Source: a virus. Taken from it: a stretch of 64,000 nt of DNA. The notes beneath the pieces are model-generated. The model saw nothing but the letters and a program-made list of their open reading frames with translations, searched no databases and was not told the DNA's origin. Below are positions 20,037-60,781 of the stretch, piece by piece. Each line of letters starts with the position of its first letter. Position 1 is the first letter of the stretch. Location: positions 52,567 to 116,566 of the IMG/VR virus record IMGVR_UViG_3300027734_000048, one strand, 5' to 3'. The translations under genes and the position numbers were made by a program.

Positions 20037-20065
20037 ATTATATCAGACTGTATCTGGTCTGTCAA
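20037..20065 (-). promoter_or_regulatory. Consensus sigma-70 promoter, leaderless
   Basis: Perfect TTGACA (20065-20060), 17-nt spacer and perfect TATAAT (20042-20037) on the minus strand. The A of the ATG at 20030 is 6 nt past the -10, about where transcription should start. The promoter lies over the last codons of the upstream Hint-domain gene. Confidence 0.85.
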
Positions 20066-31195: not shown

Positions 31196-32431
31196 TCAAC
31201 AACTTTCATAGGATGTACTGCAGTCTGAGTTAGTACATATTTGAACATCTCCAGAACATGGAGTACAGTTAGGTGTACATCCAGGGGTTACAGAAGGAGT
31301 TACAGAAGGAGTTACAGCAGGTGTAACTTCTGGTGTAACAGATGGCGTAACGGCAGGTGTTACTGAAGGTGTAACTGCTGGGGTAACGGCTGGTGTTACT
31401 GCTGGTACTCCACAAAAAGTATACCCTAAGTTCATATCTGGACATCCAGCCGTCCATGATCTTTGATATGCTGTTCCGTAACCTTGAGCATTAACATTTA
31501 AACAATATACTGTTCCATCTTCATAATCACATACTGGTGCTGGAGTAACGGCTGGAGTAACGGCTGGTGTTACTGCTGGGGTAACGGCTGGTGTTACAGA
31601 TTGTGACACACATGATATAAAAGTAATAGAAACTGCAGGACCACTAAAGTCTGCATTGTTATAACAGACATTTCCGTAGGCCTCATCTCCTGGACAACTT
31701 TCATTTCCATAAACTTCGGTTCTACAATAAGGGCCTGCTGGTGTTACTGCAGGAGTTACAGGTGTTACTGCAGGAGTTACAGGTGTTACTGCAGGAGTAA
31801 CTGGTGTTACTGCAGGAGTTACGCTTGGGCAACACTCATTATTGTCAGGATTAAATGTACCTGGGCATTGCTCTTCATTTGAAGCATAGTAACATCCTGG
31901 TCCATAAGGTGTAACTGGGGTAACTGGGGTTACAGGGGTAACTGCAGGTGTAACTGGAGGTACCCAAGGTCTTCCATCGCTGTCACAACATCTTGTTGGA
32001 TCAAAACCACATGGATCAGAATAACTTCCAGATGTATCTCCTGGTGGTGGGCAAACTAGTGGAGTTACAGGTGTTACAGGGGTAACTGGGGTTACAGGTG
32101 TAACTGGTGTTACAGGTGTAACTGGGGTTACAGGTGTAACTGGGGTTACAGGTGTAACTGGAGTTACTGGGGTTACAGGGGTGACTCCAACATATGTGTA
32201 ATATCTTATGCTGATTATAGTTTCATAATTAACCAGCGTACCTGCTTGAACTGATTGTGATTCAACTTTATTATCTAGATTTTGATCTGATGTAGAAACT
32301 GGAGTACTTATAACAGCATAATTAAGATGAGATGATGAAAATGCACTTAAAGCATCTGATGATGTCATTCCAACTACATTTGGTACTAAAACCATACCTT
32401 TTGAAGATGCCCAGGATCCAAAGTTTAGCAT
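31196..32431 (-). CDS. PASTA-domain protein with Val-Thr-Pro repeats and Cys modules
   Basis: A 411-residue protein. Residues ~13-80 form a PASTA domain ([16 protein letters not shown]...[12 protein letters not shown]), a fold that binds peptidoglycan-type ligands. Long runs of VTP and VTPA repeats follow, interrupted by four or five cysteine-rich modules (for example [44 protein letters not shown]). The domain order suggests a cell-wall-binding head on an extended Pro-rich stalk, exposed on the virion. The repeats are plausible targets for prolyl hydroxylation. It starts 8 nt past the upstream stop. Confidence 0.8.
31300..32190 (-). repeat. Val-Thr-Pro coding repeat tracts
   Basis: Several blocks of 9- and 12-nt direct repeats (VTP or VTPA units) inside the PASTA-domain gene, the longest at about 32055-32190. 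Such tracts are prone to length change. Confidence 0.9.
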
Positions 32432-41286: not shown

Positions 41287-41501
41287 TAGTTGCACTCCTC
41301 ACATGGACACCATGGGAACTCTCGTTCCTGCTTAATGCGATTAGCAAGAGCCTGAACCTTTTGATAAGTTTCAGCACTAGCACCTCTAAAAGAGATGAGA
41401 TGACCATCAGCCATCATTTGTGCAGCGACTTGAATTCGCTCATCTAGTGTTAGATGTCCGTACTTAGCGGACTTGATTGTATTTTTATCTAGTGTATTCA
41501 T
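41286..41501 (-). CDS. Small protein with C-terminal Cys motif
   Basis: A 71-residue protein. Helical with LTLDERIQVAAQMMADGHLISF and a CPCEEC end. An AAGG-type site is ~9 nt upstream. It is transcribed from the promoter at 41662-41690 through a ~150-nt leader. Function unknown. Confidence 0.7.
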   Translation of the reverse strand: MNTLDKNTIKSAKYGHLTLDERIQVAAQMMADGHLISFRGASAETYQKVQALANRIKQEREFPWCPCEECN

Positions 41502-41504
41502 TTA

Positions 41505-41660
41505 ATGAGTACCTTTCTTTTAATGTGTTAGCACTTTGCTAACGCTTTCCTTGCCTAGTGTTATTTGCTCTTATTTGCTACGCTCACCCGATAATCGGTT
41601 TATTTGGTAGGCTCAGAGGCTCAACTAGGATTTACCTTTATTTAATTTTTCTTATAGTAG
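41505..41660 (-). promoter_or_regulatory. Long structured 5' leader
   Basis: About 150 nt between a strong promoter and the first gene on the minus strand. It contains a perfect GTTAGC/GCTAAC hairpin (about 41531-41547), CCTAG/CTAGG inverted segments and the motif TGAGCGTAGCAAATAA, which is nearly repeated twice on the plus strand at 43677-43727. It could be an attenuator or RNA regulator. No coding region is seen from 41502 to 41939. Confidence 0.5.
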
Positions 41661-41661
41661 A

Positions 41662-41690
41662 ATACTATCACACAATACCCCAAAAGTCAA
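41662..41690 (-). promoter_or_regulatory. Promoter TTGACT-17-TAGTAT
   Basis: Minus-strand -35 TTGACT (41690-41685), 17-nt spacer, -10 TAGTAT (41667-41662), the same spacing and -10 as plus-strand promoters at 43611 and 46028. It drives the 41.2-41.5 kb genes. Confidence 0.8.
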
Positions 41691-41711
41691 GTCCTAACAC
41701 GGCGTGTCGTA

Positions 41712-41827
41712 TGTGATTTAGACCACAGTACATATAGGACAAATCGGACATTGTGACGTCGAGTTATCCACATGACGCACATCACATTCATAATTGAGCG
41801 TAAGTTATCCACATGACCTACATCACA
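41712..41827. promoter_or_regulatory. Regulatory cassette: Crp-like sites, GACGTC and two DnaA-like boxes
   Basis: TGTGA-N6-CCACA at 41712-41727 (one mismatch), GACGTC at 41755, DnaA-box-like TTATCCACA at 41764-41772 and 41805-41813. CATGA-N6-TCACA occurs twice, at 41771-41786 and 41812-41827, each overlapping a DnaA-like box in the same way. It lies between divergent operons. Confidence 0.7.
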
Positions 41828-41867
41828 ATCCCAAATGTCCGTTTTATGCGTTTTGTACACCCATAAA

Positions 41868-41889
41868 TGTCAGACCCCCCTGCTATACT
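41868..41889 (+). promoter_or_regulatory. TGTCAG-type promoter 1
   Basis: AAATGTCAG, 10 nt, TATACT preceded by TGC (extended -10). No -35 consensus. Drives the 41.94-42.36 kb genes. Confidence 0.8.
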
Positions 41890-41890
41890 T

Positions 41891-41932
41891 ACAGTATAAA
41901 GAAAGTCAATCAAGGTGATTGAACTAGAAAGG
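41891..41932 (+). ncRNA. Hairpin leader A (covaries with leader B)
   Basis: AGTATAAAGAAAG, then stem TCAATC, loop AAGGT, stem GATTGA, then AACTAGAAAGG. The leader at 42493-42532 has the same flanks and loop but a different stem with compensating changes, evidence for a conserved structure just before the ribosome site. Confidence 0.7.
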
Positions 41933-41939
41933 AATTCAA

Positions 41940-42122
41940 ATGAATTCAAATGTAATAAACACAGTATGTGTGTCACATACCCCTAATAAGTCTGCTATCT
42001 CAGACCATAATGATGAGCAATTCACATTTTGTGAAGTTTGCGAAACTAACATTGAGCGTTGGTATAACGATACCGACCCTGAGCGTCTACCTATGTGGAC
42101 AGATTGGAAAGTGTCTAAATAA
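41940..42122 (+). CDS. Small early protein
   Basis: A 60-residue acidic protein with a CEVCETNIERWYND segment (CxxC). Ribosome site AAAGGA in the structured leader. TAATG coupling to the next gene. Function unknown. Confidence 0.75.
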   Translation: MNSNVINTVCVSHTPNKSAISDHNDEQFTFCEVCETNIERWYNDTDPERLPMWTDWKVSK

Positions 42123-42259
42123 TGAATAACATAATTTGTTGCTTTTGCGAAAACACTTATTCCGAAGGAACGCTATTCTGCGTTTCCTGTAATGAGTATA
42201 AAGGTCTAATGACTATAAAAGAATTCAATTCTTACTATGGAGAAAGGATTTATTCATAA
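42122..42259 (+). CDS. 45-residue CxxC protein
   Basis: MNNIICCFCENTYSEGTLFCVSCNEY: CCxxC plus CxxC, a minimal zinc ribbon. Overlaps both neighbours by TAATG. Confidence 0.7.
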   Translation: MNNIICCFCENTYSEGTLFCVSCNEYKGLMTIKEFNSYYGERIYS

Positions 42260-42357
42260 TGAATTTCTATGAAACATTCTTTGTAAGTGGTAACGCACTA
42301 TTCTGGTTCTCTATGATCTGTTTAATAAGTGGATTTTATTTATTCGTAAAAGAATAA
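42259..42357 (+). CDS. 32-residue membrane peptide
   Basis: MNFYETFFVSGNALFWFSMICLISGFYLFVKE: one predicted transmembrane helix (residues ~10-28). Last gene of a three-gene operon. Confidence 0.6.
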   Translation: MNFYETFFVSGNALFWFSMICLISGFYLFVKE

Positions 42358-42389
42358 ATTTAATTCCCTGCAAAAAATGGGACGTCGCC

Positions 42390-42429
42390 TGTGGATAACT
42401 TGTGGATAACTTGTGTGATATTTATCACA
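42390..42429. promoter_or_regulatory. Cassette: two DnaA-like boxes and a perfect Crp-like site
   Basis: GACGTC at 42381, TGTGGATAA at 42390 and 42401 (11 nt apart), then TGTGA-N6-TCACA at 42414-42429. The CCGACACGCC motif follows at 42441. Confidence 0.75.
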
Positions 42430-42467
42430 AAAATACTTTCCCGACACGCCCGAAAAAGGGGTCAAAA

Positions 42468-42489
42468 TGTCAGTGGTAGGTGTTACACT
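42468..42489 (+). promoter_or_regulatory. TGTCAG-type promoter 2
   Basis: AAATGTCAG, 10 nt, TACACT. It is followed by the same AGTATAAAGAAAG leader as promoter 1. Confidence 0.8.
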
Positions 42490-42492
42490 AAT

Positions 42493-42532
42493 AGTATAAA
42501 GAAAGTTGAGAAAGGTTCTCAAACTAGAAAGG
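42493..42532 (+). ncRNA. Hairpin leader B (covaries with leader A)
   Basis: Stem TTGAGA, loop AAGGT, stem TCTCAA in the same context as leader A. Four of six base pairs differ and all stay paired. Confidence 0.7.
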
Positions 42533-42539
42533 TCAGATA

Positions 42540-42713
42540 ATGACAAATAGAATATGGGAAAGTCGTAATGACTACCAAGTTGAAAGTGACGCACAGCGTC
42601 TTGGATATGTAGCCTGTTCAGCAGGTTGTGGCAGAGTAACCGCTTGGTCGCTCTGTGTAATGTGTGGCGGTAACTATACCGAACACAATCTACTAGGAAA
42701 GGTGGTCAAATAA
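42540..42713 (+). CDS. Small zinc-ribbon protein
   Basis: A 57-residue protein with YVACSAGCGRVTAW and LCVMCGGNY, i.e. two Cys pairs (CxxxC and CxxC). AAGG site upstream. TAATG with the next gene. Function unknown. Confidence 0.72.
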   Translation: MTNRIWESRNDYQVESDAQRLGYVACSAGCGRVTAWSLCVMCGGNYTEHNLLGKVVK

Positions 42714-42883
42714 TGACTACACTAAATGAAACACTATTCAGCACAATCGTGCACGAATACCATAATGGTGGTGTTCAATCCTCTTATGGATTAGACGCTT
42801 ACACTAGAAAAGAATTGCTAAAATTCTTATTCAGTAGCAAAGGTTGCTATTGCATAAATTGTATCTCTAAGGAGTCTAAATAA
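42713..42883 (+). CDS. Small early protein with Cys cluster
   Basis: A 56-residue protein; helical, ending CYCINCISKESK (CxCxxC). TAATG overlaps at both ends. Confidence 0.7.
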   Translation: MTTLNETLFSTIVHEYHNGGVQSSYGLDAYTRKELLKFLFSSKGCYCINCISKESK

Positions 42884-43122
42884 TGAGTCTCTCTCTTGCT
42901 AATAAATTGGCACAAGATAAATTCTTTCTGCCCCCTTCAAAATATATCAACCACAAAGTCGTGGAAATTATTTCGCTAAATGACGAAACTGAAACTGTGT
43001 CAGTTACACTTCAAAAATATGGAATTAGCCGTAGTGCTAATGCCGTAAAAGGTAATCTAATAACTATTGAATTACCTTATGCTGAATTCAAAAATCTAAA
43101 TGGTTGGGGAAATAATAAATGA
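42883..43122 (+). CDS. Small early beta protein
   Basis: A 79-residue protein (INHKVVEIISLNDETETVSVTLQKYG), predicted small beta domain. TAATG upstream and ATGA downstream overlap. Not recognised. Confidence 0.72.
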   Translation: MSLSLANKLAQDKFFLPPSKYINHKVVEIISLNDETETVSVTLQKYGISRSANAVKGNLITIELPYAEFKNLNGWGNNK

Positions 43123-43283
43123 GCACTTTCATAAATCTTGATTCCGTTTGCGGAAAATCATCTGCCTCTGTTGATGTCTATGACTTAGACCTCAATCCTC
43201 ATGGCGTTATCTGTTGCGATAACTGCCGTTCAATTTTAATCTGCCGTAAGGCATGGGACTTTTTATATAAGGAGAAAAACTAA
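43119..43283 (+). CDS. Small Cys-containing protein
   Basis: A 54-residue protein: VICCDNCRSILICRKAWDFLY, CCxxC. Coupled at both ends. Function unknown. Confidence 0.68.
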   Translation: MSTFINLDSVCGKSSASVDVYDLDLNPHGVICCDNCRSILICRKAWDFLYKEKN

Positions 43284-43426
43284 TGCGAGTATTTGAATTC
43301 ACTACATTTATTGACATCGTTGCTAATAACTATGATGAAGCAATAGATATCTTTGATCATAAATTAAAATATGGAAACATAGATAGAAGCACTGTCTATG
43401 TTGCAGACATTGAGGAGAAAGAATGA
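43283..43426 (+). CDS. 47-residue early protein
   Basis: MRVFEFTTFIDIVANNYDEAIDIFDHKL..., a short alpha/beta protein, acidic end. A GGAG site lies within the previous gene's end, and the ATG overlaps its stop (TAATG). Confidence 0.66.
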   Translation: MRVFEFTTFIDIVANNYDEAIDIFDHKLKYGNIDRSTVYVADIEEKE

Positions 43427-43512
43427 AAACACTTCAAGAAAAATTAGATTTAGTTTCTAAAGAATTAGAACCAATACTTTGGGAATTACTAAATGAAATT
43501 GAAAATGAATAA
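43423..43512 (+). CDS. 29-residue acidic helix peptide
   Basis: MKTLQEKLDLVSKELEPIL..., a single amphipathic acidic helix. ATGA overlap, GAGGAG site. Last gene before terminator 43524-43553. Confidence 0.55.
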   Translation: MKTLQEKLDLVSKELEPILWELLNEIENE

Positions 43513-43523
43513 ATAAAAAACAA

Positions 43524-43553
43524 GATCGCAGAAATAAAACTCTGCGATTTTTG
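43524..43553 (+). terminator. Rho-independent terminator
   Basis: GATCGCAGA stem paired with TCTGCGAT(T), 8-nt loop and a T-run. Ends the seven-gene small-protein operon. Confidence 0.9.
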
Positions 43554-43563
43554 AACGTCCCCG

Positions 43564-43579
43564 TGTGACGAGAATCACA
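43564..43579. promoter_or_regulatory. Perfect Crp-like site
   Basis: TGTGA-CGAGAA-TCACA, just upstream of promoter 43611-43639. Confidence 0.7.
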
Positions 43580-43610
43580 TCAAAAATGTCCGATTTGTGC
43601 GTGTCTAAAC

Positions 43611-43639
43611 TTGACTTTTTGACATTTATCTGCTAGTAT
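43611..43639 (+). promoter_or_regulatory. Promoter TTGACT-17-TAGTAT
   Basis: Consensus-like -35 and -10 at 17 nt. A 21-codon ORF (43660-43725) follows, possibly a leader peptide, and the Crp-like site at 43693-43708 lies inside it. Confidence 0.75.
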
Positions 43640-43692
43640 TCTACTATAACAATTAAATAATGACTAATAAGGTAATGAGCCTAGCAAATAAA

Positions 43693-43708
43693 TGTGACCA
43701 GTATCACA
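43693..43708. promoter_or_regulatory. Perfect Crp-like site
   Basis: TGTGA-CCAGTA-TCACA between two copies of GAGCCTAGC(A/G)AATAAATG, 29 nt upstream of promoter 43737. Downstream of one promoter and upstream of the next, so repression or switching is possible. Confidence 0.7.
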
Positions 43709-43736
43709 GTGAGCCTAGCGAATAAATGCCCTAAAA

Positions 43737-43758
43737 TGTCAGCCCCTAATGGTAAGAT
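43737..43758 (+). promoter_or_regulatory. TGTCAG-type promoter 3
   Basis: AAATGTCAG, 10 nt, TAAGAT. Confidence 0.75.
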
Positions 43759-43791
43759 AGTCTTATCAACTAAACGAAAGGAAGTCTAAAA

Positions 43792-43989
43792 ATGACTTAC
43801 ACTATAACACTAGAAACCTTTTCAGGTTCTACAAAAAAAATCGCTATGCCCTCAAAAGGTGCGGTTGCTCAATTCATCTCAACTTATCCAACTCAATTAC
43901 CTGTTGGCGTATCTGTCAAGGTTGCTTGCGATACTCTCGGAATTAGTGGCACACTTCGTGGCACTCTTACACCCTCAAACTCAAACTAA
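43792..43989 (+). CDS. Small early protein
   Basis: A 65-residue protein, MTYTITLETFSGSTKKI..., a small beta-type protein with a VACDTLG element and Ser/Asn tail. Good AAAGGA site. Not recognised. Confidence 0.72.
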   Translation: MTYTITLETFSGSTKKIAMPSKGAVAQFISTYPTQLPVGVSVKVACDTLGISGTLRGTLTPSNSN

Positions 43990-44008
43990 GAATAGGAAAA
44001 CTAAAATA

Positions 44009-44215
44009 ATGGTAAAAGTAAATCACTCTCTAAATTTCGTTACAGAATTTGACGAAACACATCCAATCGCTAAACAAGCACTTTCAATTCCTGAATCAGA
44101 TTTGATTGCTATGCTTGAAGGAATGCTAAAAGAATTATTAGTGCCTGCACTAACTTCAACCCTTGATGAAATAAATGCTCGTGGCACTTACGCAATTCTA
44201 AAGGTGGCAGAATAA
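44009..44215 (+). CDS. Small early protein
   Basis: A 68-residue protein, MVKVNHSLNFVTEFDETHP..., with a helical middle (LIAMLEGMLKELL). Start by the GGA-type site and coupling to the next gene; longer upstream frames are shadows. Confidence 0.7.
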   Translation: MVKVNHSLNFVTEFDETHPIAKQALSIPESDLIAMLEGMLKELLVPALTSTLDEINARGTYAILKVAE

Positions 44216-44415
44216 TGATGACCCGTAAAGACTATGTAGCAACTGCTGAAATTCTTAGCAATTACTTTGCTACCTCTGTTTTTGATGAGCAAGGAGAAAT
44301 GCTATTTGCTGATTTAGTAGATGAATTTTCTCTAATGTTTGAAACAGATAATCCAAGATTTGACGCAACTAAATTTGCTATTGCTTGCTATGAAAAATTG
44401 GAGATGGCTAAATGA
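44215..44415 (+). CDS. Small early protein
   Basis: A 66-residue helical acidic protein (MMTRKDYVATAEILSNYFATSVFDEQ...). The first ATG is at the TAATG overlap, the second one codon later. Not recognised. Confidence 0.7.
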   Translation: MMTRKDYVATAEILSNYFATSVFDEQGEMLFADLVDEFSLMFETDNPRFDATKFAIACYEKLEMAK

Positions 44416-44561
44416 TTTTAGATACTGGAACACTTCTTGCAATCATAATTGCACTTGGTGGATCAATAACAGTTATGTGTTTATTCTGGAAACAGAACGC
44501 AGAACTAACAAGAGAAAACTATCGACTGCGTAATGAATTGCGTAAATCAAAACTAATCTAA
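44412..44561 (+). CDS. 49-residue membrane protein with coiled-coil tail
   Basis: MILDTGTLLAIIIALGGSITVMCLFW forms one transmembrane helix; a charged helix follows (NAELTRENYRLRNELRKS). ATGA overlap with the previous gene. Layout recalls phage Rz-like or small inhibitor proteins, but no function is assigned. Confidence 0.62.
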   Translation: MILDTGTLLAIIIALGGSITVMCLFWKQNAELTRENYRLRNELRKSKLI

Positions 44562-44569
44562 AATAAAAT

Positions 44570-44594
44570 CCTAAGCATGATTTAAAACTGCTCT
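44570..44594 (+). repeat. Post-operon hairpin element, copy 1
   Basis: CCTAAGCATGATTT then AAAACTGCTCT: an AGCA/TGCT stem, 9 nt past a stop codon. Related copies at 47621, 48276 and 50111. Confidence 0.6.
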
Positions 44595-44604
44595 CAATTT
44601 TTGG

Positions 44605-44670
44605 GACGTCGGGGTCGGGCGTGTCGTCCACAGACTTATCCACAGGACTATTTGTGTGAGATTTATCACA
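44605..44670. promoter_or_regulatory. Cassette: GACGTC, DnaA-like box, perfect Crp-like site
   Basis: GACGTC 44605-44610, GGGCGTGTCG at 44618, TTATCCACA 44636-44644, TGTGA-N6-TCACA 44655-44670. Followed by a second GGCGTGTCG at 44778 and promoter 44795. Confidence 0.72.
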
Positions 44671-44794
44671 CGGCTTGAGCGTCTCACTATTTGGATTTAC
44701 TGGCTAGTAAGTTGATAATTTGTGTCTAATAGGCTAGACTTACATAGTAAGAAAAAATAAATAGTTTAGCAATTACGGCGTGTCGTTTAGAAAA

Positions 44795-44816
44795 TGTCAG
44801 TCTAATATGCTAAGAT
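44795..44816 (+). promoter_or_regulatory. TGTCAG-type promoter 4
   Basis: AAATGTCAG, 10 nt, TAAGAT preceded by TGC. A TATCAAC leader and AAAGAGG site follow. Confidence 0.8.
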
Positions 44817-44850
44817 ATTTATATCAACAAAAAAAGAAAGAGGTTGGCAA

Positions 44851-45066
44851 ATGTCAGCAAATGTCTATACAATAGAAAACCTACTTGTAGGAAAGTCCTA
44901 TCGCTCACGCACCCTAACAGGTGAAATTATCTCAGCAGAGATACACCCTAAAGCAGTTTGGTATGAAAATTGTGAAACTTATCTTGTAGAAATTGCACCT
45001 AATAGCGGAAGCAATACTTGGGGTCGCAGAACTTATCGCACAGTTGCAGTAAAGACAGGTGAATAA
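44851..45066 (+). CDS. Small early protein
   Basis: A 71-residue beta-type protein (MSANVYTIENLLVGKSYRS..., WGRRTYRTVAVKTGE). Strong AAAGAGG site; first gene of a five-gene operon. Not recognised. Confidence 0.74.
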   Translation: MSANVYTIENLLVGKSYRSRTLTGEIISAEIHPKAVWYENCETYLVEIAPNSGSNTWGRRTYRTVAVKTGE

Positions 45067-45069
45067 GTA

Positions 45070-45213
45070 ATGGGATATGTAGAAATTTTTAGAATTGACG
45101 AAAATGGTGCAGGTTGGGTAGACTTAGAGTCTGCAACACCCGATGAACTATTTACTTTGGAAGTGGGCTTACTAAATGAAGGTGCATTATTCACAACGAA
45201 AGAGGCAGACTAA
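45070..45213 (+). CDS. 47-residue early protein
   Basis: MGYVEIFRIDENGAGWVDLE..., small acidic alpha/beta protein. TAATG coupling to the next gene. Confidence 0.66.
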   Translation: MGYVEIFRIDENGAGWVDLESATPDELFTLEVGLLNEGALFTTKEAD

Positions 45214-45422
45214 TGGAATATAACTACTCTCTAACTATTGCCTATGACGGCGAATTGGTATCAACAACACGAAGTGCAGATATGCTTGAGATGGTATCTG
45301 AATGGAATAAGTGTGTAGACTTTGGAGACGCTAAAGAATACGCAACCTATAATCTGTCAGACCCTACTGGCAAGATGTATACTAAGACTTTCTACCGCAA
45401 CGGAAATGTGAGCGTGAAATAA
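45213..45422 (+). CDS. Small early protein
   Basis: A 69-residue beta-rich protein (MEYNYSLTIAYDGELVSTT..., YRNGNVSVK). Coupled start. Not recognised. Confidence 0.7.
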   Translation: MEYNYSLTIAYDGELVSTTRSADMLEMVSEWNKCVDFGDAKEYATYNLSDPTGKMYTKTFYRNGNVSVK

Positions 45423-45423
45423 T

Positions 45424-45708
45424 ATGGGTTCAGTTACAGCATTAGGAATTAAAGATGAAGTCTTAGACCTAGAGACTCAGATTCTCTATCACTTAAAGGG
45501 TAATCACTATCCCCCTGTCCCCGCAGAAATGGTTGCCCCTTGCATAGAGGCTATTGACGCATACTACGAAGAAGATTACAATCGAGAAATTTCTATGCCC
45601 AAAGTTGGAGACTTTCAGATTATGTATAAAAATTCCATTACGGCACCTGCTTGGGCTATCGTGGAACAGCACCACCTGCAATTCTGGCTGCCAGAGGAGG
45701 AATACTAA
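45424..45708 (+). CDS. Small early acidic protein
   Basis: A 94-residue protein (IKDEVLDLETQILYHLK..., WAIVEQHHLQFWLPEEEY). Follows the previous stop by 1 nt. Not recognised. Confidence 0.72.
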   Translation: MGSVTALGIKDEVLDLETQILYHLKGNHYPPVPAEMVAPCIEAIDAYYEEDYNREISMPKVGDFQIMYKNSITAPAWAIVEQHHLQFWLPEEEY

Positions 45709-45710
45709 AA

Positions 45711-45956
45711 ATGTCTGCTACAATAAAAACTATGCAATTAATTTACGCAGACCTACTTACTCCAGATCAGTTGATGGAGGAAGATTTGATTAAGGTAGAT
45801 GGTGAAATAGTCACTGTCATAGGAATTGAATCTAATCCTAGTGGTGATATTTATTATGTAGGTTATGAAGATGACTTTGGTGATAAAGATGTAGTTGAAT
45901 TTAACTACGATCAAAAAGTTGAACTTTATGTATTCCGTGAAGATTTAGAAGATTAA
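45711..45956 (+). CDS. Small early acidic beta protein
   Basis: An 81-residue protein (MSATIKTMQLIYADLL..., VDGEIVTVIGIES, IYYVGYEDDFGDKD). GAGGAGG site lies inside the end of the previous gene. Not recognised. Confidence 0.73.
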   Translation: MSATIKTMQLIYADLLTPDQLMEEDLIKVDGEIVTVIGIESNPSGDIYYVGYEDDFGDKDVVEFNYDQKVELYVFREDLED

Positions 45957-45976
45957 CTAAAACCCCTAAAAAATGG

Positions 45977-46018
45977 GACGTCCCGCAGTCGGGCGTGTCG
46001 CATGTGAGATTAATCACA
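45977..46018. promoter_or_regulatory. Cassette: GACGTC, GGGCGTGTCG, perfect Crp-like site
   Basis: GACGTC 45977-45982, GGGCGTGTCG 45991-46000, TGTGA-GATTAA-TCACA 46003-46018, ending 10 nt before a -35. Confidence 0.73.
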
Positions 46019-46027
46019 ATTTATGAT

Positions 46028-46057
46028 TTGACATTTTTACTTTATCTCTGCTAGTAT
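46028..46057 (+). promoter_or_regulatory. Promoter TTGACA-18-TAGTAT, leaderless
   Basis: Consensus -35, 18-nt spacer, TAGTAT; ATG is 6 nt downstream. Confidence 0.83.
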
Positions 46058-46063
46058 TAAGTT

Positions 46064-46210
46064 ATGAAGAAGTCATCTGAGGAATTACGCAAACTAATGG
46101 AATTACGCCGTAGTAATGCTGCTTCCGCTGTGCCTTCTAAAAAGGCTTACAATCGCAAGAAATGTCAGTCTGAACTGCTACAATTAAAATATCAACAAAA
46201 AGGAGAATAG
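46064..46210 (+). CDS. 48-residue basic protein, leaderless
   Basis: MKKSSEELRKLMELRRSN..., strongly basic helical protein. TAGTAT, 6 nt, ATG. A second promoter (46163-46184) lies inside its 3' part. Could be a DNA- or RNA-binding peptide; not recognised. Confidence 0.68.
   Translation: MKKSSEELRKLMELRRSNAASAVPSKKAYNRKKCQSELLQLKYQQKGE
46163..46184 (+). promoter_or_regulatory. TGTCAG-type promoter 5, inside a gene
   Basis: AAATGTCAG, 10 nt, TACAAT within the basic-protein gene. TATCAAC leader and AAAGGAG site for the next gene follow. Confidence 0.78.
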
Positions 46211-46215
46211 CCCCT

Positions 46216-46392
46216 ATGGGAAATATCGCAGATGAATTCTATGATGAATACTACGCAACTGTCTGTCCGTCTTGTCAAGAAAATTCGGTAGACGCATATG
46301 AAGAAAAATGCACTCATTGCTTACTAGAAGAAATGTCCACTACTTATAACGAAGACATCGCTCTAGAAATGAGTCTTGGTCTTGACTACTAA
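46216..46392 (+). CDS. Small acidic zinc-ribbon protein
   Basis: A 58-residue protein, MGNIADEFYDEYYATVCPSCQ...KCTHCLLEE, two CxxC pairs. The AAAGGAG site sits 15 nt upstream. Overlaps the GP88-like gene start. Confidence 0.73.
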   Translation: MGNIADEFYDEYYATVCPSCQENSVDAYEEKCTHCLLEEMSTTYNEDIALEMSLGLDY

Positions 46393-47107
46393 ACTACTTC
46401 GCTCTAAAGATAGGAAAGTTACTAATGCTGTATCCCCTAATGGCAAGACTGCAACAATTGCTAACACTTTCGGATTACCCGCAGGAAAAGAATACTCATG
46501 CCCTGGAGCAACCTCAGTGTGTGAGTCAGTCTGCTACGCAGGAAAGTTAGAGAAACTCTTCAAAGGCGTTAAGGTTAACCTATTACATAACTGGGACCTG
46601 CTCAAAGACGCAGATCTAGAAACTATGCAGGACCTGCTCACTGAAATGATAAATGATTTCAAGAAAGACTGTATCAAGAAAGACGCCCCTATGCTATTTC
46701 GCATTCACTGGGACGGAGATTTCTTTAATGATACATACACGCAAGCCTGGAAGAATGTCATCCTAAATAATACTGATATTCAATTCTGGGTATATACACG
46801 AGTACAATCTGCAGCACTTATGCTTAAGGATATTGCTAATCTATCTTTATATTATTCTACAGATAGCGAGAATAAAGAAACTGGAATTAGCCTTAAGACT
46901 GTTCATGGAATTAAGTTAGCATATCTTGCTAAGAATTTTGCAGACGGTCAAGCAGATATGAAAGCGTTAACTTCAAAACCTGGTGCTAAGTGTCCTGAAA
47001 ATGCAAAACGCATTCCACTTATTTCAACTACTGGTAGTGCTTGTGTTTCTTGCAGATTATGTGTATACTCTAAGAGTGATATTGTATTCAGTGCGAGTAA
47101 AAAATAA
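46376..47107 (+). CDS. GP88-like cysteine-rich phage protein
   Basis: A 243-residue protein resembling mycobacteriophage gene product 88: an N-terminal KTATIANTFGLPAGKEYSCPGATSVCESVCYAGK cysteine block, FRIHWDGDFFNDTYTQAW in the centre, and a C-terminal CPENAKR...CVSCRLCVYS block. Multiple Cys suggest a metal or Fe-S site; function is not established. No ATG is available, so the start is TTG at 46376 or 46382, coupled to the overlapping upstream gene. Confidence 0.8.
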   Translation: MVLTTKLLRSKDRKVTNAVSPNGKTATIANTFGLPAGKEYSCPGATSVCESVCYAGKLEKLFKGVKVNLLHNWDLLKDADLETMQDLLTEMINDFKKDCIKKDAPMLFRIHWDGDFFNDTYTQAWKNVILNNTDIQFWVYTRVQSAALMLKDIANLSLYYSTDSENKETGISLKTVHGIKLAYLAKNFADGQADMKALTSKPGAKCPENAKRIPLISTTGSACVSCRLCVYSKSDIVFSASKK

Positions 47108-47179
47108 ATGATGAGTTTATTTTATTTATTAATGATAACACTAGTAATGTGTGCACTCCTTGGTTCTAGTGGGTTCTAG
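47108..47179 (+). CDS. 23-residue membrane peptide
   Basis: MMSLFYLLMITLVMCALLGSSGF, almost all hydrophobic, starting right after the GP88-like stop. Could be real or chance. Confidence 0.4.
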   Translation: MMSLFYLLMITLVMCALLGSSGF

Positions 47180-47199
47180 CGGATCCCCTGGAATTTTGG

Positions 47200-47262
47200 G
47201 ACGTCCCGCCCACCCCCATTTGTCAAGTTACGACACGCACGATTTTTGTGAGGTTTATCACA
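47200..47262. promoter_or_regulatory. Cassette: GACGTC and perfect Crp-like site
   Basis: GACGTC 47200-47205, CGACACGC at 47231, TGTGA-GGTTTA-TCACA 47247-47262, then AATGTCCGATTTATGACA. A TTGTAT-17-TATTAT promoter (47293-47321) follows with ATG 6 nt downstream at 47328. Confidence 0.72.
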
Positions 47263-47386
47263 ATTTAATGTCCGATTTATGACATTTTCGATTTGTATTT
47301 ATGACATTTATTTGCTATTATTAAGTTATGAACAAAACAACACCCGTAGTCCAAGATGTGAGATTTTTCTTGGCTGACTTGCGAAA

Positions 47387-47408
47387 TGTCAGTAGGAAAT
47401 GTTATACT
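47387..47408 (+). promoter_or_regulatory. TGTCAG-type promoter 6, inside an ORF
   Basis: AAATGTCAG, 10 nt, TATACT. It lies inside the ORF that starts leaderless at 47328. Confidence 0.8.
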
Positions 47409-47441
47409 TGGATTATCAACCAAACAAAAGGAGAAACAAAA

Positions 47442-47606
47442 ATGGCAGTAGCAACAGCAACATACAAGGTAGGCGACCTCTACACAACACAGAAGTCAAA
47501 GGTTACAGGAACAATTCAGGAGATTACTCCACAGGCAAATGGAAATGTTCGTGTAAAGTTAGATGTAAATGGCACACCTCGTTACACAACTTGGACAGCA
47601 AAGTAA
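47442..47606 (+). CDS. 54-residue early protein with alternative long form
   Basis: MAVATATYKVGDLYTTQKS... is a small beta-barrel-like protein (VTGTIQEITPQANGNVRVKL). AAAGGAG lies 9 nt upstream, and promoter 6 is just before it. The frame stays open back to a leaderless ATG at 47328 (TATTAT, 6 nt), which would give a 92-residue form from a separate promoter. Both may be made. Confidence 0.75.
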   Translation: MAVATATYKVGDLYTTQKSKVTGTIQEITPQANGNVRVKLDVNGTPRYTTWTAK

Positions 47607-47620
47607 TCTAATTACACTTT

Positions 47621-47645
47621 CCTGAGTATGAAATAAAACTGCTCA
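47621..47645 (+). repeat. Post-operon hairpin element, copy 2
   Basis: CCTGAGTATGAAATAAAACTGCTCA; TGAGTA pairs with TGCTCA through one wobble. 15 nt after a stop codon. Confidence 0.6.
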
Positions 47646-47680
47646 ACACCCCCAACTAACAGAAAAGGAAACAGACCCAA

Positions 47681-48103
47681 ATGGCACAACGCAAAGCAAT
47701 CTCAGTAAAGATAGCAACAGAAAAGGTAATCAAGGCACTAGAAGGCTCACTCGCTAAACTAGAACTTGACTACACATCACAAGAAGCAAGCGAAGCAAAG
47801 TATCAGAAAGCACACGAAGCGTGGAAAAAGCAAATTGGTGAGTGGGCTATTGCCAACTTCTCAAAGGCTGAGAACCTTCGCACTAACTATCGTTCTTGGA
47901 ACAACAACCTCAATGTTGATTTTGACATTGTAGTAAAGCAAGGCGACTTCCCAACTGAACCTGAAAAGGATTTTGAGGTTATCCATCAGCACACTTATCG
48001 TGAGCAGAAAGAGGAAATTGCTAACGCAATTCGTATTCTCAAGATGACAGATGAGGAAACAGTAAGCACAAGCACTTACAATGCTATTGCTCGTTACCTA
48101 TAA
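47681..48103 (+). CDS. Early helical protein
   Basis: A 140-residue protein, helical and charged (AISVKIATEKVIKALEGSLAKL..., YREQKEEIANAIRILKM). AGGA site. Not recognised. It lies alone between two hairpin elements, probably strongly expressed. Confidence 0.8.
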   Translation: MAQRKAISVKIATEKVIKALEGSLAKLELDYTSQEASEAKYQKAHEAWKKQIGEWAIANFSKAENLRTNYRSWNNNLNVDFDIVVKQGDFPTEPEKDFEVIHQHTYREQKEEIANAIRILKMTDEETVSTSTYNAIARYL

Positions 48104-48312
48104 CTAAATAACGAAACAGGGGCAGTTTAGAGAGTGTTCTCGCCCAATGTCGTAAGTAAGAACTCTCATTATTAGGGCAAGGGGTTCAGAGCCTCTCCTA
48201 TGTTCGCCAGGCTGATTAGGGCGACAATAGAAATACTATAGAGCAAGGTTCCTGCAGACCTAAAGAAGCAGACATCCTGAGCACGATCCAAAAAGGCTCC
48301 CCGCAAGGGTCT
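48104..48312 (+). ncRNA. Possible structured RNA region
   Basis: About 200 gene-free nt that look more GC-rich than the surroundings. A stem GAGA(GT)GTTCT/AGAACTCTC (48130-48140 with 48159-48167), a GGTTC...GAGCC-type segment, the post-operon hairpin copy 3 (48276-48299) and CCC/GGG near 48300. No ORF fits. It could be a long 3'UTR, an attenuator or a small RNA; low certainty. Confidence 0.3.
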
Positions 48313-48320
48313 TTGACAAA

Positions 48321-48342
48321 TGTCAGTGGCCACTAGTACAAT
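48321..48342 (+). promoter_or_regulatory. TGTCAG-type promoter 7
   Basis: AAATGTCAG, 10 nt, TACAAT. Here a perfect TTGACA lies 18 nt upstream of the -10 (48313-48318) as well. Confidence 0.83.
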
Positions 48343-48374
48343 TAATATAAACAAACTAACAGAAAGAGGCCCCC

Positions 48375-48815
48375 ATGGACCAGCAATACCCAACAATAAT
48401 CAATGCAACTGATGAATTTAATCAGAAGCAGGCTGCAGCACTACAAGAAGCAATTGAAAAAAAGGATGCATTAATTGTATCTCTTCAAGACCGTATGTCT
48501 GCAATGTCTCAGCGCTCATATGCTGATTCAGCGGAGCGTAACCGTATGGTTGAATCAATGCAAGAGTGGACTCTAGAAGAGTTAAGCAATGAAACAATTA
48601 CAGAATCACAGGCCCAAGAAATTGCAGAAATTATGGGCTTTGACCTTACCAAGGAAGTTGAAGTTGAGGTTACCGTTACGTACAACCTAACACTGCAGGT
48701 ACCTCATGATGAGGACGCCGAATCAATTGTTAACGATATCGATTTTGAATCTGTATCTTATAATTCTGATAACATCACATGGCTATCGGCCAGTGTTGAC
48801 AGAATTGATTTTTAG
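48375..48815 (+). CDS. Early protein with coiled coil
   Basis: A 146-residue protein. Residues ~15-65 are a coiled coil (EFNQKQAAALQEAIEKKDAL), ~65-90 an acidic helix, ~95-146 a beta segment (VEVEVTVTYNLTLQVPHDEDA). AAAGAGG start. Not recognised; a similar split is seen in small actinophage early proteins. Confidence 0.78.
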   Translation: MDQQYPTIINATDEFNQKQAAALQEAIEKKDALIVSLQDRMSAMSQRSYADSAERNRMVESMQEWTLEELSNETITESQAQEIAEIMGFDLTKEVEVEVTVTYNLTLQVPHDEDAESIVNDIDFESVSYNSDNITWLSASVDRIDF

Positions 48816-48918
48816 TAGGGGGCTACTAAATATAGACATGTCGAATGTCTTTAAACTAGGCAAGGGACCTGAGCATTGTCCATGTAAACGGCTCACTTTA
48901 AATTCTTTCAAAATTTTT

Positions 48919-48957
48919 GACGTCCCGCCTGTGGATAACTTTGTCAAATCGACACGC
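48919..48957. promoter_or_regulatory. Cassette: GACGTC, DnaA-like box, CGACACGCC
   Basis: GACGTC 48919-48924, TGTGGATAA 48930-48938, CGACACGCC ~48950, then AATGTCCGATTTAT at ~48983. No complete TGTGA-N6-TCACA here. Confidence 0.62.
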
Positions 48958-49024
48958 CGTTACGACTATATGATCTTTCCCACAATGTCCGATTTATCCA
49001 TGTTTAACTATCTGGATTTGCATA

Positions 49025-49046
49025 TGTCAGTCAGTCCTGCTATACT
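49025..49046 (+). promoter_or_regulatory. TGTCAG-type promoter 8
   Basis: ATATGTCAG, 10 nt, TATACT with TGC before it. Drives the DUF932 gene through a TTTCAAC leader and AAAGGAG. Confidence 0.82.
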
Positions 49047-49078
49047 TAAATTTCAACAAACAAAAAGGAGAAAAACTC

Positions 49079-50101
49079 ATGGCACATGACCTAGAAACAC
49101 AAAACGGCGTTGCATCTTTTGCATCATTCCGTGAACCCGCTTGGCATGGATTGGGTACCGTATTTACAGAAGAGAAAACAACTAGCGAGATGCTATCAGC
49201 AGCAAATCTCAATGGTTGGAATGTTCGTCTGGAAGATTTGGAAACCCCATCGCATCTATCAAGCGACAAGTCGTACCAATATGTATTGCGTACAAACCCT
49301 ACAGACAACACACAAACCGATATTCTTGGAATCGTTGGTGAGCGTTATGTCCCTCTACAGAATGAAGATTTATTCTCATTCGGTGATAACATTCTAGATG
49401 GTGGTGGTCGTTGGGAGACTGCTGGTGCTATCAAGGGTGGTCGTGTAGTATTCGGCTCTCTTGCTCTTGAGCGTGAGACTGTACTAGACCCAAATGGTGT
49501 TGCAGATAAGGTAAAGACTTATTTGCTCATTAACACATCACACGATGGCTCTATTGCAATTCAAGCATCTATTACACCTGTTCGTGTTGTATGTGCTAAC
49601 ACTCTTAACCTTGCTCTTGGTGGCGTAGGTCGTAAGAAGAATAAGGGCATCAAGCAATCATTCAAGATTCGCCACACGCAAACAGCAGAAGGCAAAATCC
49701 AAATTGCTCGTGAGACTCTTGGTCTTGCTAATGCTTACATGGACGAATTCGACATCATGGCTAAGGCAATGATTGAGAAGGAAGTCAATGCTAAATCGTT
49801 TAACGATATTATTCTCGCTGCTTATCCTAAGCCAGAAAAAGATGCTAAGGGTGCAATCAAGAAGTGGGAAAACAAGGTCGATATTATTAACGACATCTAC
49901 ACAGGTGAATTTAATGGTATGATTGCTGGCAATGCGTGGGGTGCGTTTAATGCACTTACAGAACGCCTTGACTGGTACCGCTCTGCTCGTGGTGGTTCTA
50001 ACGAATCTATCCTTGCATCAGCATCAGGATTTGACCCTGCAATTAACGCAGAGAAAAATCGTTTGCTAAAAGTTGTACAAAATGTAATGCAACTTTCATA
50101 A
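49079..50101 (+). CDS. DUF932 / phage-plasmid-like protein
   Basis: A 340-residue protein of the DUF932 (TIGR03299) family found in phages and plasmids: REPAWHGLGTVF, VGERYVPLQNEDLFSF, KGGRVVFGSLAL, YLLINTSHDGSIAIQASITPVRVVCANTL and RHTQTAEGKI. Function unknown. It is the largest early gene in this part and has the best promoter and ribosome site, so it is probably abundant. Confidence 0.92.
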   Translation: MAHDLETQNGVASFASFREPAWHGLGTVFTEEKTTSEMLSAANLNGWNVRLEDLETPSHLSSDKSYQYVLRTNPTDNTQTDILGIVGERYVPLQNEDLFSFGDNILDGGGRWETAGAIKGGRVVFGSLALERETVLDPNGVADKVKTYLLINTSHDGSIAIQASITPVRVVCANTLNLALGGVGRKKNKGIKQSFKIRHTQTAEGKIQIARETLGLANAYMDEFDIMAKAMIEKEVNAKSFNDIILAAYPKPEKDAKGAIKKWENKVDIINDIYTGEFNGMIAGNAWGAFNALTERLDWYRSARGGSNESILASASGFDPAINAEKNRLLKVVQNVMQLS

Positions 50102-50110
50102 CAAAAAAAT

Positions 50111-50134
50111 CCTGAGCACGATTTAAAACTGCTC
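50111..50134 (+). repeat. Post-operon hairpin element, copy 4
   Basis: CCTGAGCACGATTT then AAAACTGCTC; with the next A the TGAGCA/TGCTCA stem is complete. 10 nt past the DUF932 stop and 6 nt before tRNA-Asp, so it might also guide processing. Confidence 0.65.
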
Positions 50135-50139
50135 AACAT

Positions 50140-50213
50140 GGTCCGTTAGAATAGTTGGTTAGTTCGCTACCCTGTCACGGTAGAGGTCACGGGTTCAAGT
50201 CCCGTACGGATCG
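50140..50213 (+). tRNA. tRNA-Asp (GTC)
   Basis: Full cloverleaf: acceptor GGTCCGT/ACGGATC, anticodon loop CTGTCAC (GTC), T arm CGGGTTCAAGTCCCG. No encoded CCA. It lies apart from the other tRNAs, between DUF932 and the next operon. Confidence 0.95.
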
Positions 50214-60198: not shown

Positions 60199-60272
60199 GC
60201 ACCAGTAGCCAAGTTGGTTAAGGCCCCGAACTCATAATTCGGTTATCGTAGGTTCGAGTCCTACCTGGTGTA
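60199..60272 (+). tRNA. tRNA (CAT): Met or Ile2
   Basis: Acceptor GCACCAG/CTGGTGT, anticodon loop CTCATAA (CAT), T arm TAGGTTCGAGTCCTA. Whether it reads Met or, after lysidine modification, Ile AUA cannot be told by eye; a separate Ile (TAT) is next to it. Confidence 0.93.
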
Positions 60273-60276
60273 CTAC

Positions 60277-60350
60277 ACATCTGTAACTCAGTTGGTTAGA
60301 GTACCTGCCTTATATGCAGAGAGCCGAAGGTTCAAGTCCTTCCAGATGTA
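60277..60350 (+). tRNA. tRNA-Ile (TAT)
   Basis: Acceptor ACATCTG/CAGATGT, anticodon loop CTTATAT (TAT) with one mismatch (C-A) at the top of the stem, normal T arm. Reads the rare codon ATA. Confidence 0.88.
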
Positions 60351-60372
60351 CGATACAATTAAATAGAGTATT

Positions 60373-60443
60373 GCGGATGTTGCATATTGGTAGTGCCTCT
60401 GCCTTCCAAGCAGAAGGGGTGAGTTCGATTCTCATCATCCGCT
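60373..60443 (+). tRNA. tRNA-Gly (TCC)
   Basis: Acceptor GCGGATG/CATCCGC, anticodon loop CTTCCAA (TCC), T loop TTCGATT. Confidence 0.94.
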
Positions 60444-60447
60444 CCAA

Positions 60448-60520
60448 GTCCCCATGGTCTAGAGGCCTAGGACTCCACCCTTTCACGGTGGCAACACGGG
60501 TTCGAATCCCGTTGGGGATA
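60448..60520 (+). tRNA. tRNA-Glu (TTC)
   Basis: Acceptor GTCCCCA/TGGGGAT, stem CCACC/GGTGG with loop CTTTCAC (TTC), T arm ACGGGTTCGAATCCCGT. Confidence 0.94.
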
Positions 60521-60529
60521 CAATATCAT

Positions 60530-60603
60530 TCCTAGATCGTCTAACGGCAGGACAGGGGCCTTTGAAGCCCTTAATCGTGGTTCGAATCCATGTCTGGGAG
60601 CCA
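60530..60603 (+). tRNA. tRNA-Gln (TTG)
   Basis: Acceptor TCCTAGA/TCTGGGA, anticodon loop CTTTGAA (TTG), T loop TTCGAAT. CCA appears encoded at 60601-60603, unlike its neighbours, directly next to the following tRNA. Confidence 0.92.
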
Positions 60604-60604
60604 G

Positions 60605-60675
60605 GGGCCTAAAGCATTAAAGTGATGCTCAGGACTTTTAATCCTGAGAAGAAGGAGCATTACCTTCTAGGCCTA
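60605..60675 (+). tRNA. tRNA-Lys (TTT)-like, atypical loops
   Basis: All stems pair: acceptor GGGCCTA/TAGGCCT, D stem GCAT/ATGC, anticodon stem CAGGA/TCCTG with loop CTTTTAA (TTT), T stem GAAGG/CCTTC. But the D loop (TAAAGTG) lacks GG and the T loop is AGCATTA instead of TTCGAAT. Either a functional degenerate tRNA or a decoy or pseudo-tRNA. Confidence 0.7.
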
Positions 60676-60679
60676 CTAC

Positions 60680-60752
60680 ACCTCTGTAGTTCAGTGGACA
60701 GAACGATGGACTTCTAAGCCATGCGTCGCAGGTTCGATTCCTGCCAGGGGTA
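60680..60752 (+). tRNA. tRNA-Arg (TCT)
   Basis: Acceptor ACCTCTG/CAGGGGT, anticodon loop CTTCTAA (TCT) with one mismatch next to the loop (A-G), T loop TTCGATT. Reads AGA, frequent in AT-rich phage genes. Confidence 0.9.
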
Positions 60753-60781
60753 CAACATGGTATACTTTTAATGGAGGGCAT

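What the first reader, a model, noticed from the sequence alone, without database searches (positions are those of the whole stretch)
41891..42532. Covarying hairpin leaders before two early operons
Leaders at 41891-41932 and 42493-42532 have the same flanks (AGTATAAAGAAAG and AACTAGAAAGG) and loop (AAGGT), but their 6-bp stems differ at four pairs, all compensated (TCAATC/GATTGA versus TTGAGA/TCTCAA). This is direct evidence that the RNA (or DNA) structure just 5' of the ribosome site is selected. It may be a translational operator or processing site.
Basis: seen in the sequence. Interest (0 to 1): 0.75.

Follow-up and report, generated by a model that had tools for sequence, protein, structure and literature searches.

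The report
Covarying hairpin ribosome-site leaders in actinophages
A family of uncultured viruses, probably of actinobacteria, puts a small RNA hairpin just in front of the ribosome-binding site of a few genes at one control region, and its two sides always change together across more than 100 sequence records, so the folded RNA itself is under selection, most likely to control how translation of those genes starts.

Summary
The two leaders (41893-41932, 42493-42532) belong to a family found on over 100 IMG/VR stretches. Sites picked only by promoter and right flank pair perfectly in 133 of 136 cases. About 20 distinct stems occur with a near-constant loop (AAGGU) and near-constant flanks. The actinobacterial-type Shine-Dalgarno (AGAAAG) lies unpaired between the two. 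Records carry 1-3 copies, usually clustered in one region, and copies in one record never share a stem (0 of 74 pairs). Canonical stems keep nearly constant stability. This fits an RNA leader acting at translation initiation, possibly bound by a protein through the loop. It does not fit RNase III processing or a DNA operator, and fits a lambda nut-like site only weakly. The closest described relative is the stem-loop upstream of the CR3/CR4 repeats of cluster M mycobacteriophages, which I reproduced in phage Estes. Cluster K ESAS repeats differ, because their authors found no support for hairpins. Verdict: a real new variant of a known kind. Selection on structure is shown by sequence; the mechanism is inferred.

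The parts
41868..41889 (+). promoter of leader 1: TGTCAG-7 nt-TGC-TATACT (extended -10)
   Evidence: exact match to the phage's dispersed promoter motif; 21 matches with <=2 mismatches in the window vs 10.7 expected, 0 of 100 shuffles; promoter function inferred
41893..41905 (+). left flank AGTATAAAGAAAG, probable 5' end of the transcript; AGAAAG next to the stem is SD-like
   Evidence: in 27 distinct leaders AGAAA is invariant and the final G is in at least 90%; TSS inferred from the -10
41906..41922 (+). hairpin 1 of leader 1: TCAATC-AAGGT-GATTGA
41923..41932 (+). right flank ACTAGAAAGG with Shine-Dalgarno AGAAAGG (complementary to actinobacterial 16S 3' end CCUUUCU, from general knowledge)
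   Evidence: unpaired between hairpins in the predicted fold
41932..41947 (+). hairpin 2 of leader 1 around the start codon: GAATTC-AAAT-GAATTC (ATG at 41940-41942)
41940..42122 (+). first gene after leader 1 (60 aa, MNSNVINTVC..., C-x2-C motif), unknown function
   Evidence: (no Pfam/PHROG match)
42468..42489 (+). promoter of leader 2: TGTCAG-7 nt-TGT-TACACT
42493..42505 (+). left flank AGTATAAAGAAAG of leader 2
42506..42522 (+). hairpin 1 of leader 2: TTGAGA-AAGGT-TCTCAA
42523..42532 (+). right flank ACTAGAAAGG with Shine-Dalgarno
42532..42544 (+). hairpin 2 of leader 2 around the start codon: GTCA-GATAA-TGAC (ATG at 42540-42542)
42540..42713 (+). first gene after leader 2 (57 aa, MTNRIWESRN..., CxxxC...CxxC zinc-ribbon-like), unknown function

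Best explanation
The element is a structured 5' leader that acts in the mRNA at translation initiation. A dedicated phage promoter starts a short transcript (about 47 nt before the AUG). Hairpin 1 (6-8 bp, loop AAGGU) and hairpin 2 (4-6 bp around the AUG) fold on either side of the Shine-Dalgarno AGAAAG and hold it single-stranded. Stem sequence is free to vary as long as pairing and a set stability are kept, so recognition, if any, is of the constant loop and flanks, by the 30S subunit or by a protein. The likely result is strong or tightly set, context-independent translation (and perhaps mRNA protection) of the first gene of one to three operons expressed at the start of infection. Shown by sequence: the two covarying helices, constant loop, position, promoter coupling and family-wide occurrence. 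Inferred: transcription start, early timing, ribosome effect, and whether it is constitutive or regulated.
For: Perfect pairing in 133/136 sites chosen without regard to pairing; covariation score 0.82 vs 0.31 shuffled and at most 0.24 slid. AAGGT is flanked by a >=6-bp stem 168 times in 3471, while unrelated control loops give 0-6. In 65 of 76 distinct leaders tabulated, the GAAAGG motif starts only 3-4 nt after the stem. The start-codon inverted repeat is >=4 bp in 40/47 distinct leaders vs 11.9 expected, against 78/304 for other GAAAGG sites; synonymous Asn codons covary with the upstream arm (GAATTC with AAT 63 times, GAGTTC with AAC 7 times, no exceptions). RNA folding puts the SD between two hairpins. 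Other leaders of the same promoter type hold the SD in a hairpin loop (TTATC/GATAA, TCTC/GAGA, ATCTC/GAGAT). Eight 6-bp stem classes keep 1-2 G-C pairs and a narrower energy spread than recombined stems (sd 0.92 vs 2.11, P=0.008).
Against: No expression, probing or translation data. Only 2 G-U pairs among 78 genuine leaders, fewer than RNA helices usually show. The near-invariant AAGGU loop is more than a plain structural spacer needs, which favours a specific ligand. Hairpin 2 includes the AUG and could repress as well as help.
Confidence: 0.55

Rival explanations
1. Translational operator: a phage- or host-encoded protein binds the AAGGU loop and flanks of hairpin 1 and represses or activates the first genes, as T4 gp43 or RNA-phage coat proteins do. 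This is a regulated version of the best explanation.
For: Loop and flanks almost invariant while stems are free, the usual mark of loop-recognised hairpins; position next to the SD; the first genes encode small Cys-rich proteins.
Against: No candidate protein identified; loop variants AAAGU, AAAUA, AGAGU and even AAC occur, so loop identity is not absolute.
Confidence: 0.22
2. A lambda nut/boxB-like site: the hairpin with a purine-rich 5-nt loop near the 5' end of operon transcripts recruits an antitermination factor.
For: 1-3 copies per record, promoter-proximal, usually within one 1-4 kb region, in several records on divergent strands, like lambda nutL/nutR; boxB also has a 5-nt loop and phage-specific stems (general knowledge).
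Against: Tight spacing to the SD, the start-codon hairpin and SD-in-loop variants are not explained; a crude scan found plus-strand terminator-like sites only at 41456-41545, upstream of leader 1, and none in 41600-50200.
Confidence: 0.1
3. 5' mRNA stabiliser of the ompA/T7 gene 10 leader type, with little effect on initiation itself.
For: Hairpin lies close to the inferred 5' end; AGAAAG near the 5' end could bind 30S (inference).
Against: By the inferred TSS about 10-13 nt stay unpaired 5' of the hairpin, more than classic stabilisers leave; does not explain the constant loop or hairpin 2.
Confidence: 0.08
4. DNA-level dyad: the inverted repeat is a binding site for a dimeric repressor; half-sites change together because both monomers are identical.
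For: Near-absence of G-U pairs; dyads lie just downstream of promoters.
Against: Copies in one genome never share half-sites (0 of 74 pairs), so one protein could not read them all; the centre AAGGT is asymmetric and constant in orientation; synonymous-codon covariation at the AUG and SD-in-loop variants point to RNA.
Confidence: 0.05

Closest known systems
Stem-loops upstream of conserved repeats CR3/CR4 in cluster M mycobacteriophages (Bongo, PegLeg, Rey, Estes, Aziz; PMC7953290)
   Same: Actinobacteriophage; short hairpin with varying stem directly 5' of a constant SD-bearing repeat before a start codon. In Estes 13 of 14 matches to ACACGGAGAAGGG or close variants have a predicted hairpin of -4 kcal/mol or better in the preceding 26 nt.
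   Different: Cluster M repeats sit before many genes of one long operon, often right after another hairpin; stems and loops are more G+C-rich with no AAGGT loop in the copies listed; no start-codon inverted repeat was evident to me. Here the element is promoter-coupled, 1-3 per record, with a near-constant loop and hairpin 2.
SAS/ESAS of cluster K mycobacteriophages (PMC3203893, PMC12699233)
   Same: Repeated elements at translation starts, half of them with inverted repeats directly upstream.
   Different: [quoted passage not shown] here pairing is perfect and compensated.
T4-type translational operators and structured initiation regions (gp43, gene 32, gene e, gene 25 split SD; PMC3014915)
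   Same: RNA structure at a phage ribosome site controlling initiation.
   Different: There a single gene with a known protein or known inhibition; here a repeated module with no known ligand and no sequence homology.
lambda boxB/nut hairpins (general knowledge)
   Same: Small hairpin with purine-rich 5-nt loop near the 5' end of early operons, stems differing between phages.
   Different: No boxA shown, tight coupling to the SD, second hairpin at AUG.
Corndog-type (cluster O) 17-bp repeat (PMC4351075)
   Same: Repeated short inverted repeat in an actinophage.
   Different: Its arms are invariant and sites lie in either orientation and inside genes, as for a DNA site; here arms vary and orientation is fixed.

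Membership tests
Cluster M CR3/CR4-type stem-loop + SD repeat | variable-stem hairpin immediately 5' of a constant SD-bearing repeat | tested here: met
   here; for Estes
Cluster M CR3/CR4-type stem-loop + SD repeat | CR3 sequence ACACGGAGAAGGG | tested here: not met
   constant part here is ACTAGAAAGG
Cluster M CR3/CR4-type stem-loop + SD repeat | repeated before many genes within one operon | tested here: not met
   1-3 per record, promoter-proximal
Cluster K SAS/ESAS | SAS GGGATAGGAGCCC and 17-bp imperfect repeats lacking base-pairing support | tested here: not met
   perfect compensated pairing; neither the constant parts nor the arms resemble SAS by inspection
Protein-bound translational operator | hairpin overlapping or next to the SD with conserved loop | tested here: met
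Protein-bound translational operator | a protein that binds it and changes translation | not testable with these tools
   needs binding assays
lambda nut site | boxA next to a boxB hairpin, terminators downstream, N-like protein | tested here: inconclusive
   no plus-strand terminator-like site in 41600-50200 (crude scan); boxA and an N-like protein not searched for
RNase III processing site | long double-stranded helix (about two turns) | tested here: not met
   helix is 6-8 bp
Any Rfam 15 family | match at the curated score | tested here: not met
   only 8 tRNAs in the window

The most novel reading that the evidence does not exclude
A phage regulatory RNA that separates recognition from sequence. 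A constant loop and SD flanks are read by a dedicated factor, stems are kept different in every copy within a genome (to avoid recombination between repeats or cross-pairing of transcripts) while held at one stability, and a second hairpin gates the start codon. It would be a two-hairpin translation-initiation switch not described before.
Probability: 0.25. Interest if true: 0.78.

Novelty: new variant of a known kind. Interest (0 to 1): 0.6.

Why it matters
It is one of the clearer cases of covariation for a small cis-acting RNA in uncultured phages: about 20 compensated stems around a near-fixed loop, directly at the ribosome site. It suggests that variable-stem hairpin leaders, so far described for a few mycobacteriophages, are a wider actinophage strategy. 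The rule that copies in one genome never share a stem gives a testable idea of how repeated regulatory RNAs avoid recombination. The module is small enough to test as a portable translation part.

Tried and rejected
Rfam at gathering scores: nothing but tRNAs. Blastn of the region and of the element against named phages: no relative. Pattern in 84,980 bacterial and archaeal genomes: 5 chance hits, none a hairpin, so the element is seen only in viral contigs. Pfam/PHROGs on the downstream genes: nothing. RNase III site: stem too short. DNA operator: rejected mainly because copies in a genome differ. Non-17-nt spacers of the first pattern are almost all coding-region chance hits; exceptions are L055 (AAC tri-loop variant) and L009, a real leader with shifted register. 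The larger 81-row set was selected for pairing, so covariation statistics were taken only from sets chosen by promoter and flanks, or from A1 (which adds a few noncanonical leaders).

Full report
What is there. The window is bases 52567-116566 of a 116,566-base virus record. Structural genes run mainly on the minus strand up to about 38 kb; small unknown genes run on the plus strand from about 39 kb. The portal protein is 47-49% identical to those of large Streptomyces phages such as Daubenski and Birchlyn, so the host is probably an actinobacterium. The two leaders lie at the start of the plus-strand small-gene region, each directly after a promoter-like TGTCAG-7 nt-TGnTAnACT. In the whole record 12 such motifs with at most one mismatch lie on the plus strand, all in this region, and one on the minus strand.

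The observation. Flanks, loops and stems are exactly as described, apart from one stem base counted with the right flank. Four of six pairs differ and all are compensated.

Family. The pattern TAAAGAAAG-N10-30-ACTAGAAAGG occurs on 114 IMG/VR stretches. Almost all matches with the 17-nt spacer are hairpins after the same kind of promoter and before a small gene; most other spacings are coding-region accidents. Relaxed flanks gave more copies. Selecting only on extended -10 and right flank, 133 of 136 sites pair at all six positions; of the other three, one is a variant with an AAC tri-loop and two are coding sequence. Ten arm classes are listed in that call, two of them non-elements; swapping arms between classes pairs 39% of positions. 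Ignoring the flanks, AAGGT is enclosed by >=6 bp 168 times out of 3471, against 0-6 for unrelated control loops (AAAGT and AAATA, which are natural variants, give 31 each; TTCCA and TGGAA are reverse complements of each other, so they count once). About 20 different stems of 6-8 bp occur. On 27 distinct rows, 49 cells have both sides changed against 13.6 in shuffles and the covariation score is 0.82 against 0.31. Two of the five summary measures (pairs with change on both sides; number of pair types) do not exceed the shuffles, because shuffling creates odd pair types; the paired-cell and covariation measures are decisive. A covariance model found 1-3 copies in each of 46 records (all preselected as carriers), usually clustered within 1-4 kb and in several on divergent strands.

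Second hairpin. The sequence between SD and start codon is complementary to the first codons: GAATTC...GAATTC, GAGTTC...GAACTC, GATTTC...GAAATC, GAGTCA...TGACTC, GAGACA...TGTCTC, GTAACA...TGTTAC. Forty of 47 distinct leaders have >=4 bp against 11.9 expected when downstream parts are reshuffled; other GAAAGG ribosome sites show it more weakly (78 of 304 vs 25) and other sites least (48 of 717 vs 26). Within genes that begin Met-Asn-Ser the synonymous codon AAT always goes with GAATTC and AAC with GAGTTC (63 and 7 cases; related sequences, so not independent). The predicted fold has hairpin 1, unpaired AGAAAG, hairpin 2.

How stems change. On a tree of the gene after leader 1, 68 rows need at least 18 changes of stem class. 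Leaders with 98-100% identical downstream DNA carry different stems; in L103 versus L119/L130 the promoter side is nearly identical too. Stem class and promoter type are reassorted, so recombination between short conserved flanks has probably spread the classes; the number of independent inventions is nearer the number of distinct stems (about 20) than the number of sites. Across 56 records with two or more copies none of 74 pairs shares a stem; after removing near-duplicates 0 of 50, against 6.1 expected (P 0.0005), or 4.2 (P 0.004) when stems are shuffled within downstream gene families. Relatedness makes these P values optimistic. Eight 6-bp classes have one or two G-C pairs, with energy spread 0.92 against 2.11 for recombined stems (P 0.008). 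I read this as a free sequence held to a set stability, with some pressure against identical copies.

Mechanism. The stem starts 13-17 nt after the -10 in most leaders, and GAAAGG follows the sixth pair by 3-4 nt in 65 of 76 distinct leaders tabulated. AGAAAG complements the 3' end of actinobacterial 16S rRNA (general knowledge). A second AGAAAG lies directly 5' of the stem. Related promoters in the same phages put the SD in the loop of a small hairpin instead. Together these point to structured presentation of the ribosome site. The near-invariant loop suggests that something reads it; whether that is the 30S subunit or a protein is open. A DNA operator is unlikely because no two copies in a genome share half-sites. 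A lambda-like nut site would explain the layout of few copies at the 5' ends of operons, but not the SD coupling or hairpin 2. RNase III processing is unlikely with 6-8 bp.

Comparison. Cluster M mycobacteriophages have repeats with upstream stem-loops (PMC7953290). In Estes I found a predicted hairpin of -4 kcal/mol or better in 13 of 14 stretches just before ACACGGAGAAGGG or a close variant, with differing stems. The primary description of those repeats was not held, so I cannot say whether its authors noted covariation. This is the nearest kind; sequence, placement, loop and hairpin 2 differ. Cluster K ESAS repeats were judged by their authors not to form RNA hairpins (PMC3203893).

Limits. 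All sequences are from metagenomic contigs without expression data. Transcription start, early timing and host are inferred. The 81-row set was selected for pairing and was not used as proof of covariation; it was used for the within-record comparison of stems.

Noticed in passing
window 41764-41813 and 42390-42409: Four DnaA-box-like TTATCCACA sites surround leader 1 (9 in the window vs 0.85 expected); such sites average about 1.0 within 700 nt of each leader against 0.28 background. Possible replication origin or DnaA-controlled region.
   Followed up: partly
L030 2186-, L056 5122-, L061 1889-, L087 12451-, L160 404-, L221 767-, L035 4381- (positions on the strand read): Leaders of similar promoters whose Shine-Dalgarno sits in the loop of a small hairpin with differing stems (TTATC/GATAA, TCTC/GAGA, ATCTC/GAGAT).
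   Followed up: partly
window 43737-49046: Further TGTCAG-7-TGnTAnnnT promoters without an AAGGT hairpin; some following genes (for example at 43792) still have a start-codon inverted repeat (AAGTC...GACTT).
   Followed up: partly
L004 9393 onward, L018, L051, L103, L119 and others: A second, longer leader type ending in GGTTAG-AAATA-CTAACC or similar hairpins before AAAGAAAGG, with varying stems.
   Followed up: no
window 20043-21263 (-): Tail-fibre-like protein with repeated FSPFGVFG motifs and a C-terminal stretch that resembles an intein/Hint domain (SIETKVLTTNGYVEAKNLNVGDKV...).
   Followed up: no
window 31196-32431 (-): Protein dominated by VTP repeats and Cys-rich segments.
   Followed up: no
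window 60199-60753: Cluster of seven tRNA genes (Met, Ile, Gly, Glu, Gln, Lys, Arg).
   Followed up: no
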